Positions 20,985 through 28,851 of a stretch of 34,789 nucleotides of DNA are shown in pieces. How positions within the stretch are numbered: the first letter of the stretch is position 1; the number at the start of each line of letters is the position of its first letter. This stretch comes from Halanaerobiales bacterium (GTDB taxonomy: Bacteria > Bacillota > Halanaerobiia > Halanaerobiales > M55B127), in NCBI GenBank assembly GCA_021736945.1, contig JAIPEX010000015.1, forward strand, positions 1-34,789, given 5' to 3'. The translations under genes and the position numbers were made by a program. The notes below the pieces were generated by a model. It was not told the origin of the DNA. It saw only the letters and a program-made list of their open reading frames with translations, and did no database searches.

Positions 20985-21011
20985 TTTTATATATTTAACT
21001 TTAAAAAATTA

Positions 21012-21042
21012 AAGAGGTTCTAAATTTAATAGGACCTTTTTT
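21012..21042. terminator. Probable bidirectional terminator
   Basis: AGGTTCTA (21015-21022) pairs with TAGGACCT (21030-21037) with one G-U pair and a seven-base AT-rich loop. T-runs follow on + (21037-21042), and a T-rich stretch follows on -. It lies between the RND gene and the convergent HsdS-like gene. Confidence 0.65.
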
Positions 21043-21064: not shown

Positions 21065-22360
21065 TTACTTTTTATTAAAAATATTGTTTTTGTTTATTAG
21101 ATGGATTATTTTTTCATTATGGAACCTCTCAATTATTTTAAATTGATCTATTATACCAGGTATAATGACCGGAATCTTTTTTAAGGATTTAATATTTAAA
21201 TAAGTCATAGACTTATTTTTACTGTATCTATTTAGGTAATAGTCCCCAATAAAACTATTTAAAAACAATGCTAAATATTGAGGCATCACAATATTTTTAT
21301 CTGCTCTAATTCTTGCTATATCGTTATAAAAATGCATTCCTGCTTCTTTTCTAGTTACCAGAGTACAAGGACCAATTTTACCTTTTACCCTGAGCATAAT
21401 ATCATTGTTTTGCAATTGATGTTTTTTTATATTATGGTCAGGGGTTTTATTTTTGTTTTCTAATTTTAATTTCATAACCTCAATATTTTTACCTTTTATT
21501 AGAGATTTTTTATCTATTTTATCTAAATTACGATATTGTAATCCCATAGTTATATCTAAGGCCATTTCATTAAGATTCTTAATTTGATGACTAGTTTTTG
21601 ACTCTAAATTCGAAGTCAATAACTTTTTTATATTCCATGTTTTTTTCTGTTTTAATGTTTTTTTGGAATAAATTTCACTACTTTTATTTTTTAATATATT
21701 ATAATTTATTTCAAAGGTATCTTCAAAAATTTTATCAATAGTATCTTTTAAAGATAATTTGCTAGTTTTTTCTTCAAGAGAACGAAGATAGCTTTTGACA
21801 TTTTTACTCTTCTTTTTTCTTTTAGATTCCTCTAACCATTTAATATTTATCTTTTTAAACTCTTCAATATTTATTTTTTTACCATAACTGCCTTGATAAT
21901 ATGATCTAACTTGTTTTTTTACATAATCATCTTCTAGAGCCCAGTAAATATAATAAGGGTCTGTCATTCTATTATATTTAGGTACCAAAACAGCGAAATA
22001 ATCCGAGACTATATAAGTGTTATTTTTAATAAAAACAGGAGAAATCTTTTTACTTTGGATAGTTGGGAATATAATATCTCCAGGTTTGGCAATCAACCTG
22101 GCTCTTTTAGGTAAGTCCTTAATGCTTTTTATTGATAGTGGTTTTATAATCCTGCCAGTATTCTTATCTATAGATTTTGCTTCTATTAATTTCATGTCTT
22201 CACTTATCTTATTATTACTAAGGTATCTTTTTTCAGGGTTAATATATAATAAGTCAGTTATATTTATTATTTCTGTATCCGGATGTTTAGGTAAATTAAG
22301 ATGTCTTTTAACTGACCACTTATTCTCAAGTTCTTTTTTATTAATAACTATTGAATTCAT
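21065..22360 (-). CDS. HsdS-like DNA specificity protein with two target-recognition modules
   Basis: A 431-residue, Lys/Asn-rich protein with two similar halves, each a target-recognition module followed by a helical spacer as in type I specificity subunits. In the first, KPGDIIFPTIQSKK and SDYFAVLVPKYNRMTDPYYIYWAL (about 94-150) lead to GSYGKKINIEEFKKINI and a charged helix. In the second, LQNNDIMLRVKGKIGPCTLV and YNDIARIRADKNIVMPQYLALFLNS (about 315-375) lead to SMTYLNIKSLKKIPVIIP. Its ATG overlaps the upstream stop (ATGA), so it is translationally coupled to the HsdM-like gene and has no strong ribosome binding site of its own. No restriction (HsdR) gene is in the window. DNA binding is inferred, not shown. 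Confidence 0.75.
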   Translation of the reverse strand: MNSIVINKKELENKWSVKRHLNLPKHPDTEIINITDLLYINPEKRYLSNNKISEDMKLIEAKSIDKNTGRIIKPLSIKSIKDLPKRARLIAKPGDIIFPTIQSKKISPVFIKNNTYIVSDYFAVLVPKYNRMTDPYYIYWALEDDYVKKQVRSYYQGSYGKKINIEEFKKINIKWLEESKRKKKSKNVKSYLRSLEEKTSKLSLKDTIDKIFEDTFEINYNILKNKSSEIYSKKTLKQKKTWNIKKLLTSNLESKTSHQIKNLNEMALDITMGLQYRNLDKIDKKSLIKGKNIEVMKLKLENKNKTPDHNIKKHQLQNNDIMLRVKGKIGPCTLVTRKEAGMHFYNDIARIRADKNIVMPQYLALFLNSFIGDYYLNRYSKNKSMTYLNIKSLKKIPVIIPGIIDQFKIIERFHNEKIIHLINKNNIFNKK

Positions 22361-23274
22361 TCTACCACATCTTTAAAATAAGAGTTGAATTTATTCAGTA
22401 AATTATTTTTCTCTGCTTGTGTATCCTTTTCTAGATGTGCTAAAAAAACTTTATCATTTTTTTCTTTACTATTTTTTATAATTAAAAGGGAAGTATTTAC
22501 TGCCCTATTTTTATATAAGATAGTTTTAGGAAATTCTATAATTGATAACAGATCAAAATTATCTAAAATTCTTTCTCTAAGATCTTCAAATTGTTTGTTA
22601 TTCAAAACTCCATCTTTGACAACACCAAATATATATCCATCGTCTTTTAACCTTTGCAATGTTGCCTGTAAAGCTGCCTCTTTTATATCAACTTTTTTAT
22701 TATTGAAGTCAACCTTTTTACTGTTAAATAATATAGGACTGAATATTAAATCATATTTCCGCTCTAGATCTGTATTTACTATATTCTCTTCAACAAAATT
22801 AACTTCACCTATCTCACCAACTTTATAGAGGTTTTCATATATATTTTTATTGCTTATTTTATCACTATAAATATCAATCTGATCTATATTCATATTATAG
22901 TAAATCCGTTCTAGCAATTCTGGTTCATTGTTAGTTAATAAAATATTCAAGTTTTTTTCTTCTTTAATTATATCTAATTGTTCGGCTATCATCTCTAAAA
23001 TATTTTCAGGGATAAAAATCGGTAATTCTTTTTTATTGATATTGTTATTAATAACTTTTGATAATACCTGAAATTTTTCTTTTGGTCCCAATAAAATCAT
23101 TTCTTTTATTACTTCATAATATGGATTGCTTTTATTTATATTCATTGTATTATTTTGATAATTTATTAATATTTCAAGAATATTTTTTACATCATCTATC
23201 GAATCATTACCACTGTTATTTATATACTCCTGTACTATGTTAATTTCATCAATAATAGAAGTTTTCTCTACCAT
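22357..23274 (-). CDS. HsdM-like protein with degenerate methyltransferase motifs
   Basis: A 305-residue protein, much shorter than normal HsdM (about 500). The region after about 180 aligns by eye with the N6-adenine methylase domain: AALQATLQRLKDDGYIFGVVKDGVLNN, then RERILDNFDLLSIIEFPKTILY and VNTSLLIIKNSKEKNDKVFLAHL, the usual post-catalytic order. However, the catalytic motif IV (N/D-P-P-F/Y) reads DLIFSPILF near 176-184, and the SAM-binding motif I position reads NILLTNNEPEL instead of a glycine-rich DPxxGxG loop. It is therefore probably not an active methyltransferase. It is cotranscribed with the HsdS-like gene. It may act as a scaffold, a DNA-binding regulator, or be decayed. Confidence 0.7.
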   Translation of the reverse strand: MVEKTSIIDEINIVQEYINNSGNDSIDDVKNILEILINYQNNTMNINKSNPYYEVIKEMILLGPKEKFQVLSKVINNNINKKELPIFIPENILEMIAEQLDIIKEEKNLNILLTNNEPELLERIYYNMNIDQIDIYSDKISNKNIYENLYKVGEIGEVNFVEENIVNTDLERKYDLIFSPILFNSKKVDFNNKKVDIKEAALQATLQRLKDDGYIFGVVKDGVLNNKQFEDLRERILDNFDLLSIIEFPKTILYKNRAVNTSLLIIKNSKEKNDKVFLAHLEKDTQAEKNNLLNKFNSYFKDVVE

Positions 23275-23295: not shown

Positions 23296-23325
23296 ATTAT
23301 ACATATGTTGTGAACATATAATGAA
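23296..23325 (-). promoter_or_regulatory. Promoter with palindromic operator in its spacer
   Basis: On the minus strand TTCATT (23325-23320) and TATAAT (23301-23296) are separated by 18 bases. That spacer is almost entirely filled by the perfect palindrome ATATGTT-GTG-AACATAT (23303-23319 on +). A repressor bound there would block the HsdM/HsdS promoter. The leader is only about 15 bases, and AGAGGTGG at 23288-23281 is the ribosome binding site. Confidence 0.5.
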
Positions 23326-23404
23326 TTATTTTTTGCTTTGTTAGATAATAAAAAATTTTTTCCTCTATAAAAGCTGTCTTTTGATTTGTTAGTATTTTTT
23401 AAAA

Positions 23405-27683: not shown

Positions 27684-28040
27684 ATGTCTGATTATCATGA
27701 ACCCCAAGAAAATATGGATGAAAAGACTCTTGACACCGCACGTATATTAAATAGTTTAAAAGAAGAAATTGAGGCTGTCAATTGGTACAATCAGAGGGCT
27801 TCCGCAACTAATGATCCAGATGTACAAGCAATTTTAGAACACAATCGCGACGAAGAAATAGAACATGCTGCTATGGCATTAGAATGGTTAAGAAGAAATG
27901 TACCAGCCTGGAAAGAAGAATTAGAAACTTATCTTTTTACCAATCAACCAATAACAGAAATTGAAGAAGCTGAAGGTGAAGGAGAAGATGACGATAATGG
28001 TGATGAAAACAAAGGTTTAAATATTGGTAATATGAAATAA
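27684..28040 (+). CDS. Encapsulated ferritin-like protein (EncFtn)
   Basis: A 118-residue cargo protein that oxidises Fe(II) for mineral storage inside an encapsulin shell. The helix pair EEIEAVNWYNQRA and HNRDEEIEHAAMALEWLRR holds the expected ferroxidase residues Glu28, Tyr35, Glu58 and His61, matched by spacing to the Rhodospirillum rubrum EncFtn. The segment YLFTNQPI is also conserved. A Glu/Asp-rich linker (about 92-110) leads to GLNIGNMK, which resembles the C-terminal encapsulin-targeting peptide (LGIGSLK type). A strong AAGGAGG ribosome binding site precedes the ATG. The gene lies 19 bases upstream of the shell gene. Confidence 0.93.
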   Translation: MSDYHEPQENMDEKTLDTARILNSLKEEIEAVNWYNQRASATNDPDVQAILEHNRDEEIEHAAMALEWLRRNVPAWKEELETYLFTNQPITEIEEAEGEGEDDDNGDENKGLNIGNMK

Positions 28041-28059
28041 CATATAAGGAGGTATTAAT

Positions 28060-28851
28060 ATGGATTTATTAAAAAGAAATCAAGCTCCAATCACTCAAAA
28101 AGGATGGGAAGAAATAGATGAAAGAGCTGCTGAGGTTTTCAAAACTCAATTAACAGCACGTAAATCTGTTCACGTAAATGGACCACACGGAATAAACTTT
28201 AATTCAATTTCAGAAGGTAAACTTGGAATTATTAAGGGAAATGAAGATGAAGTAAGAAGTAGCAAATATAAAGTTACTCCACTTATTGAATCACGCTATA
28301 CTTTTGAACTAAATAGATGGGAAATGGATAATTTAGAAAGAGGAGCTAAAGATGTTGATTTAGGTCCTTTAGAAGAAGCAGTAGAAAAAATGGCTGAATT
28401 TGAAGATAATGCAATCTATAATGGCTTTAAAGAAGGAGACATTAAGGGATTAAATAAAGTAGCTAAAAAATCTCTTTCTTTTGGTAAAGAAGATTCTTCA
28501 ATAATGAATTCAGTAAGTGAAGGTATGATAATGTTACAAGATGTATATGCTGATAAACCATATAATTTAATTGTGGGTAAAGAAGCATATTCACGAATCC
28601 AAAAACAGATTAAAGGTTATCCTTTAAATAAAAGAATCGAAGAAACTATTGAGGGCGAGATAATTTTCAGTGAAGAAATTGAAGGAGCACTTTTAATCCC
28701 AAAAGATCATGAAGATTTAGAATTAACTATTGGTCAGGACTTCTCAATTGGATTTGAAGAACATGATGCAAAATCAGTTAAGTTATTTATAAGTGAATCA
28801 TTCATGTTCAGAGTTCTTGATCCTGAAATAATAGTAAAATATACAGTTTAA
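28060..28851 (+). CDS. Encapsulin shell protein (family 1, HK97 fold)
   Basis: A 263-residue protein that self-assembles into an icosahedral nanocompartment around EncFtn. The N-terminus (MDLLKRNQAPITQKGWEEI) and the segments GPLEEAVEKMAEFEDNAIYNG near 107-127 and PYNLIVGKEAYSRI near 167-180 are typical of family 1 shells. The C-terminus RVLDPEIIVKYTV is the conserved beta strand. Length is normal. No fused cargo domain is present. The operon consists of the cargo and shell genes and ends at the terminator at 28874-28902. Confidence 0.95.
   Translation: MDLLKRNQAPITQKGWEEIDERAAEVFKTQLTARKSVHVNGPHGINFNSISEGKLGIIKGNEDEVRSSKYKVTPLIESRYTFELNRWEMDNLERGAKDVDLGPLEEAVEKMAEFEDNAIYNGFKEGDIKGLNKVAKKSLSFGKEDSSIMNSVSEGMIMLQDVYADKPYNLIVGKEAYSRIQKQIKGYPLNKRIEETIEGEIIFSEEIEGALLIPKDHEDLELTIGQDFSIGFEEHDAKSVKLFISESFMFRVLDPEIIVKYTV

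What the first reader, a model, noticed from the sequence alone, without database searches (positions are those of the whole stretch)
21065..23274. HsdS-like protein coupled to a pseudo-methyltransferase, without HsdR
Seen: the HsdM-like partner keeps the post-catalytic N6-methylase order but has SPIL in place of NPPF/Y and no glycine-rich SAM loop, while the partner has two specificity-type modules. The genes overlap at ATGA and no restriction gene is near. Established: active HsdM needs both motifs. Inference: the pair may be a sequence-specific DNA-binding complex repurposed for regulation, chromosome organisation or defence, not modification.
Basis: partly seen in the sequence, partly recalled or inferred. 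Interest (0 to 1): 0.7.

Follow-up and report, generated by a model that had tools for sequence, protein, structure and literature searches.

The report
Catalytically dead HsdM–HsdS gene pair
A bacterium of the order Halanaerobiales keeps, under selection, a two-gene offshoot of a DNA restriction system whose DNA-reading half is well preserved while its methylating half has lost the residues needed for methylation; distant relatives of the pair lie in anti-virus gene clusters, so it is probably a DNA-binding device derived from restriction and not a methylating one.

Summary
Confirmed with one correction. M (22357–23274, −, 305 aa) and S (21065–22360, −, 431 aa) overlap at ATGA. M is HsdM-like only after motif IV. 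All 34 HsdM-type comparison sequences keep NPP[FYW]. S has two specificity modules. The pair is no decaying pseudogene: against a 64%/78%-identical orthologous pair, dN/dS is 0.31 (M) and 0.13 (S; both target domains about 0.11). Relatives were found only in Halanaerobiia: one orthologue pair, one M–S fusion in an integrative element of Halanaerobium saccharolyticum, and three distant pairs in one family. None has NPP[FYW]; five of six also lack a normal motif I. The three distant pairs lie beside nuclease/helicase genes, share a small protein ('Unk_01'), and two sit in islands with BREX or Zorya/DUF499 genes. The window pair has no such partner nearby. Its genome also has a complete canonical type I system elsewhere, whose HsdS shows no similarity to this one. 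Best reading: a restriction-derived, sequence-specific DNA clamp without methylation, of defence ancestry. Whether the solo pair now acts in defence or regulation is undecided. New variant of a known kind.

The parts
22357..23274 (-). M: truncated HsdM-like pseudo-methyltransferase, 305 aa
   Evidence: ORF; PF02384 at residues 199-293 only; profile match to HsdM over residues 68-273, probability 99; dN/dS 0.31 (0.22-0.45) against the G037 orthologue
22912..22953 (-). degenerate motif I (SAM loop position), residues 108-121 NLNILLTNNEPELL
   Evidence: hhalign to canonical HsdM, where the consensus is DPxxGSGGFL; the orthologue has SINLLLTNNNAKLL
22726..22737 (-). degenerate motif IV, residues 180-183 PILF in place of NPPF
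   Evidence: hhalign register; PVLF in the orthologue; 34 of 34 HsdM-type comparison sequences have NPP[FYW]
22396..22680 (-). conserved post-catalytic part of the N6-methylase fold
   Evidence: PF02384 positions 163-260
22357..22360 (-). ATGA stop/start overlap of M and S
   Evidence: sequence
21065..22360 (-). S: HsdS-like specificity protein, 431 aa
   Evidence: PADLOC Specificity_I 9e-26, NCBIfam; dN/dS 0.126 (0.08-0.18)
21836..22270 (-). target-recognition domain 1 (residues about 31-175)
   Evidence: PF01420 hit 21839-22276; 83% identity with G037, 41% with G437; dN/dS 0.108
21641..21835 (-). central spacer (residues about 176-240), assigned as helical/coiled-coil by position
   Evidence: position between the two TRDs; least conserved part of S apart from its first 30 residues, 66% with G037
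21146..21640 (-). target-recognition domain 2 (residues about 241-405)
   Evidence: PF01420 hit 21116-21523; 77% identity with G037; dN/dS 0.110
23296..23339 (-). conserved upstream block with a possible own promoter (TTCATT-N18-TATAAT, 23325-23296)
   Evidence: AAAGCAAAAAATAATTCA and TATAATAT conserved in G037 across otherwise diverged spacers; assigned by eye, not listed by the consensus scan
21011..21041 (.). terminator-like hairpin between the convergent S and MMPL genes
   Evidence: consensus scan, 2 found against 0.7 expected in the region

Best explanation
The pair encodes a sequence-specific DNA-binding complex derived from a type I methyltransferase (HsdM plus HsdS), in which M can no longer methylate and serves as a structural clamp around DNA read by the two target domains of S. 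Shown from sequence: loss of motif I and motif IV, retention of the rest of the fold, two target domains under strong purifying selection, overlapping M and S genes, and a family of relatives that have all lost NPP[FYW]. Inferred: M and S assemble, bind a fixed bipartite site, and neither modify nor cut it. Ancestry is most likely anti-mobile-element defence, where in distant relatives such a module would mark or hold DNA for neighbouring nucleases and helicases. The window pair lacks such a partner nearby and would act alone as a roadblock or regulator, or with a partner elsewhere in the genome.
For: Motif losses in a profile-supported alignment. NPP[FYW] absent in all six relatives: PILF, PVLF, NSPL, IPPL, NPEF, SPMF. 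Intact reading frames and purifying selection in two species, strongest in the target domains. Target domains more conserved than the spacer. A natural M-S fusion of 698 aa in H. saccharolyticum indicates a physical M-S complex; an engineered EcoKI M-S fusion is functional (PMC3510504). Distant pairs lie beside Mre11/Rad50/NurA/HerA (G437), a NERD-UvrD helicase, AddAB-like genes and BrxA (G213), or PD-(D/E)XK, DUF499, DUF1156 and ZorA-like genes (G441). The small Unk_01 protein occurs in exactly those three of 59 class genomes, always in the same cluster. Type I M subunits contact DNA and close a clamp around it (PMC9613975); METTL14 shows that an N6-methylase fold with a degenerate motif (EPPL) can serve as a non-catalytic partner (PMC5023411).
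Against: No binding, structure or phenotype was shown. AlphaFold models with 3-5 sequences were poor (pLDDT 50 and 47), so fold and complex are not confirmed. M lacks the long C-terminal part of HsdM, and deleting the C-terminal tails abolished PacII M1M2S assembly (PMC9613975), so M-S assembly is not assured. The two closest members (window, G037) have no defence gene beside them. The tree has long branches and does not settle one or two origins.
Confidence: 0.5

Rival explanations
1. A host regulator or chromosome-associated protein: the pair binds a few fixed chromosomal sites and controls transcription or organisation, with no defence role left.
For: Orphan pair with possibly its own conserved promoter, at a conserved chromosomal locus in two species; target domains under strong constraint and alike between species, unlike the usual rapid change of HsdS target domains; no nuclease nearby.
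Against: Accessory distribution: G034 and G035 have the same locus with an alpha/beta hydrolase (seen in G034) and no M-S; relatives sit in defence islands or an integrative element. M evolves faster than every neighbour measured (64% identity).
Confidence: 0.27
2. A hetero-methyltransferase: the dead M is a scaffold (METTL14-like) in a complex with S and an active M encoded elsewhere, so S still directs methylation.
For: Type I complexes with two different M subunits exist (PacII M1M2S, PMC9613975); the genome encodes other N6_Mtase proteins, including a canonical HsdM on C19.
Against: The C19 HsdM has its own HsdS and HsdR, and that HsdS has no similarity to the window S. G037 keeps the pair although no other PF01420 protein was found there (genome 79% complete).
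Confidence: 0.12
3. Recent wreck of a type I system: genes left after loss of HsdR and decaying.
For: Catalytic motifs lost; M shorter than HsdM; no HsdR nearby.
Against: Both frames are intact in two species at synonymous divergence about 0.7-0.9; dN/dS 0.31 and 0.13 with bootstrap intervals far below 1; similar degeneration in distant relatives.
Confidence: 0.05
4. An active methyltransferase with unusual motifs.
For: Some HsdM-like proteins carry altered motif IV, for example YtxK with DLPVGYYP and an intact motif I; F183 is retained; G437 keeps a FSGTGAL loop.
Against: In the window protein both the SAM loop and N/P/P are gone, and the G037 orthologue shares the loss.
Confidence: 0.06

Closest known systems
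Type I restriction-modification methyltransferase (HsdM2-HsdS)
   Same: Gene order M-S with overlapping ends; N6_Mtase C-terminal part of the fold; S with two target-recognition domains and a spacer.
   Different: Motif I and motif IV lost; M 305 aa against roughly 500 or more; no HsdR; target domains are among the best-conserved parts of S between species.
MADS (methylation-associated defence system) MAD2/MAD5
   Same: Among the best-scoring defence models for both proteins (mad2 43 bits for M; mad5 45 bits for S in PADLOC, 61 bits in NCBIfam); a distant relative (G437) has a HerA neighbour resembling MAD8.
   Different: Far below curated cut-offs (25.7 against 720 bits; 60.9 against 400); no other MAD gene in the window; MAD2 is annotated as a DNA methyltransferase.
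YtxK family of Firmicutes
   Same: HsdM-like protein of similar length with non-NPPF motif IV (DLPVGYYP).
   Different: Intact motif I (DPAVGTGNLL); separate clade (100/100) in the tree; an S partner was not looked for.
METTL3-METTL14
   Same: Works-like precedent: an N6-methylase fold with a degenerate catalytic motif (EPPL) acts as a non-catalytic partner.
   Different: RNA writer complex with an active partner; different MTase class; no HsdS.
Engineered EcoKI M-S fusion (Type IMS)
   Same: Single-chain M-S like the natural fusion in H. saccharolyticum.
   Different: Catalytically active and assembled with extra HsdM and HsdR.

Membership tests
Type I R-M methyltransferase | Motif I (SAM loop, DPxxGSGGF-type) | tested here: not met
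   LLTNNEPELL at this position
Type I R-M methyltransferase | Motif IV NPP(F/Y/W) | tested here: not met
   PILF; PVLF in the orthologue
Type I R-M methyltransferase | N6_Mtase fold | tested here: inconclusive
   C-terminal part above the Pfam cut-off, profile match over residues 68-273; structure model poor
Type I R-M methyltransferase | HsdS with two target-recognition domains | tested here: met
   Two PF01420 hits just over the cut-off; PADLOC 9e-26
Type I R-M methyltransferase | HsdR partner | tested here: not met
   None found among scanned window proteins; the HsdR on C19 belongs to another complete system
Type I R-M methyltransferase | Sequence-specific m6A activity | not testable with these tools
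   Needs a methylome or an assay
MADS | MAD2 and MAD5 at curated scores, with the other MAD genes | tested here: not met
   25.7 and 60.9 bits against 720 and 400; no other MAD-like gene seen in the window
YtxK | DLP[VI]GYYP with intact motif I | tested here: not met
Type IIB/IIG R-M enzyme | Nuclease domain fused to M | tested here: not met
   M is 305 aa with no other domain found

The most novel reading that the evidence does not exclude
A family of restriction-derived systems in Halanaerobiia in which a catalytically dead M-S complex recognises fixed DNA sites and hands DNA to exchangeable end-processing machines (Mre11-Rad50-NurA-HerA, AddAB-like, PD-(D/E)XK-ATPase), with the small Unk_01 protein as adaptor: sequence-specific targeting without self-methylation, of which the window pair is a solo derivative.
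Probability: 0.2. Interest if true: 0.75.

Novelty: new variant of a known kind. Interest (0 to 1): 0.45.

Why it matters
HsdM–HsdS is a textbook methylating module whose specificity domains normally change quickly. A selected lineage that keeps the reading half constant while losing methylation would be a natural counterpart of nuclease-dead DNA-binding tools. It would also raise the question how such a complex distinguishes self from foreign DNA without a methyl mark. Genome annotation calls such genes 'methyltransferase' and 'restriction subunit S', which would mislead methylome predictions.

Tried and rejected
Searches of viral contigs with the family alignment and with G437 M found no relative. 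Plasmid and phage searches with distant relatives returned only remote matches, annotated mostly as type I M or S subunits or methyltransferases. A wider profile (six M proteins) drowned in HsdM; the 28 canonical loci checked all keep NPP. Whether all the dead M proteins form one clade is undecided: two groups in the tree, one clade not rejected (p-AU 0.23). AlphaFold models of window M and of the fusion were too poor to use. Foldseek of the M model ranked N6-methylases first, but at TM about 0.2–0.27 and E above 0.001, so it is not used as evidence. The 175-aa gene that ends the G437 and G213 clusters also occurs beside BREX, SbcCD and other genes without M–S, so it and the resection genes are not claimed as fixed parts of one system. 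Whether the AddAB-like genes in G213 are an extra copy was not settled.

Full report
Observation. The two minus-strand ORFs are real and overlap by ATGA. M (305 aa) matches N6_Mtase only downstream of motif IV and PADLOC/NCBIfam methylase models at low scores. S (431 aa) is clearly HsdS-like, with two target-recognition modules, each just above the PF01420 cut-off in a six-frame search. Aligning the profile of M and its relatives with canonical HsdM gives probability 99 over residues 68–273 and places PILF (180–183) at NPPF and LLTNNEPELL at the SAM loop. Loenen et al. (PMC3874165) name motifs I and IV as the SAM-binding and catalytic sites of gamma-class methyltransferases.

Is it more than chance or decay? 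All 34 HsdM-type comparison sequences have NPP[FYW]; some were gathered by that motif, but all 28 canonical loci returned by the profile search of 398 phylum genomes had it before selection. An orthologous pair in another species of the genus (G037; CAJXKY010000001, uncultured Halanaerobiales) is intact and shares both losses. dN/dS (Nei–Gojobori) is 0.31 for M (bootstrap 0.22–0.45) and 0.13 for S (0.08–0.18), with about 0.11 for each target domain; neighbours give 0.04–0.19. The pair is therefore maintained, S about as strictly as its neighbours and M less so.

Locus. In G034 and G035 the same neighbourhood is present without M–S; in G034 an alpha/beta hydrolase stands in its place, so the pair is an accessory cassette. 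A block resembling a promoter is conserved upstream of M in the two species. No restriction gene was found among the window proteins scanned. The genome does carry a complete canonical HsdM/HsdS/HsdR on contig C19, whose HsdS has no similarity to the window S. G037 has no other PF01420 protein in its 79%-complete assembly.

Relatives. Beyond G037, three levels were found. (a) Halanaerobium saccharolyticum has a 698-aa natural fusion of M and S in a segment with an integrase, RecT and ArdC-like genes, beside a divergent ResIII-type helicase gene. (b) G437 has a 319-aa M with IPPL but a fairly intact SAM loop (FSGTGAL), and an S, followed on the same strand by Unk_01, Mre11-, Rad50-, NurA- and HerA-like genes; its NurA–HerA junction looks truncated. 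(c) G213 and G441 have longer M (456 and 480 aa; NPEF, SPMF) with overlapping S and Unk_01. In G213 they lie between a NERD–UvrD helicase and AddAB-like genes, with BrxA downstream; in G441 beside PD-(D/E)XK_13, DUF499, DUF1156 and PLD-helicase genes and a ZorA-like gene. Unk_01 occurs in exactly these three of 59 class genomes; PADLOC describes it as an unknown small protein sometimes fused to CARF. The window, G037, fusion and G437 M proteins form one clade (99/96), G213 and G441 another (100/99); a single origin is neither shown nor rejected (p-AU 0.23). Long branches make this tree weak.

Mechanism. In type I complexes both M subunits contact DNA and close a clamp around the site read by S (PMC9613975). 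A dead M can keep that role, as METTL14 does in the RNA writer (PMC5023411). The natural fusion indicates that M and S work as one body, and an EcoKI M–S fusion made in the laboratory is functional (PMC3510504). I therefore favour a sequence-specific, non-modifying DNA clamp of defence ancestry. The steps 'M and S assemble', 'bind a fixed site' and 'act in defence' are inferred. Against easy assembly: M lacks most of the C-terminal part of HsdM, and in PacII deletion of the M C-terminal tails abolished assembly (PMC9613975). The structure models were too poor to help.

Comparison with the known. By membership it fails the catalytic definition of type I methyltransferases and the curated scores of MADS; it resembles both. 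Literature searches of the held library found no description of a dead-M/S pair, but that library is partial. I file it as a new variant of a known kind, interest 0.45.

Noticed in passing
window 27684-28851: Encapsulin (Linocin_M18, PF04454) preceded by a 118-aa ferritin-like protein, probably its cargo.
   Followed up: no
L062 1786-3491 (G437): NurA-like and HerA-like genes next to the M-S cluster seem truncated at their junction (NurA C-terminus and HerA N-terminus missing), either a deletion or an assembly error.
   Followed up: partly
L025 6654-9267 (Halanaerobium saccharolyticum): Three consecutive proteins of 232-242 aa without any Pfam match above cut-off follow the M-S fusion gene; they are alike in length and may be paralogues.
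   Followed up: no
L136 (G406): A 397-aa protein with a short canonical N6-methylase (NPPY) followed by what looks like a single target-recognition domain: an active miniature M-S fusion.
   Followed up: partly
L128-L132, L134, L135: YtxK-type HsdM-like proteins with motif IV DLP[VI]GYYP (SLPVGYYP in one) and mostly a recognisable motif I: another lineage without NPPF.
   Followed up: partly
L028 1983-12619 (contig C19 of the same genome): Complete canonical type I R-M system next to what look like an OLD-type ATPase and a UvrD-type helicase (Gabija-like pair, judged by eye).
   Followed up: no
L124-L126 and L062/L111: A 166-175-aa protein (GTMTAQ...PSHYLFLSE) recurs in Halanaerobiia gene clusters beside BrxA/BrxB, SbcCD- or AddA-like genes and others.
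   Followed up: partly
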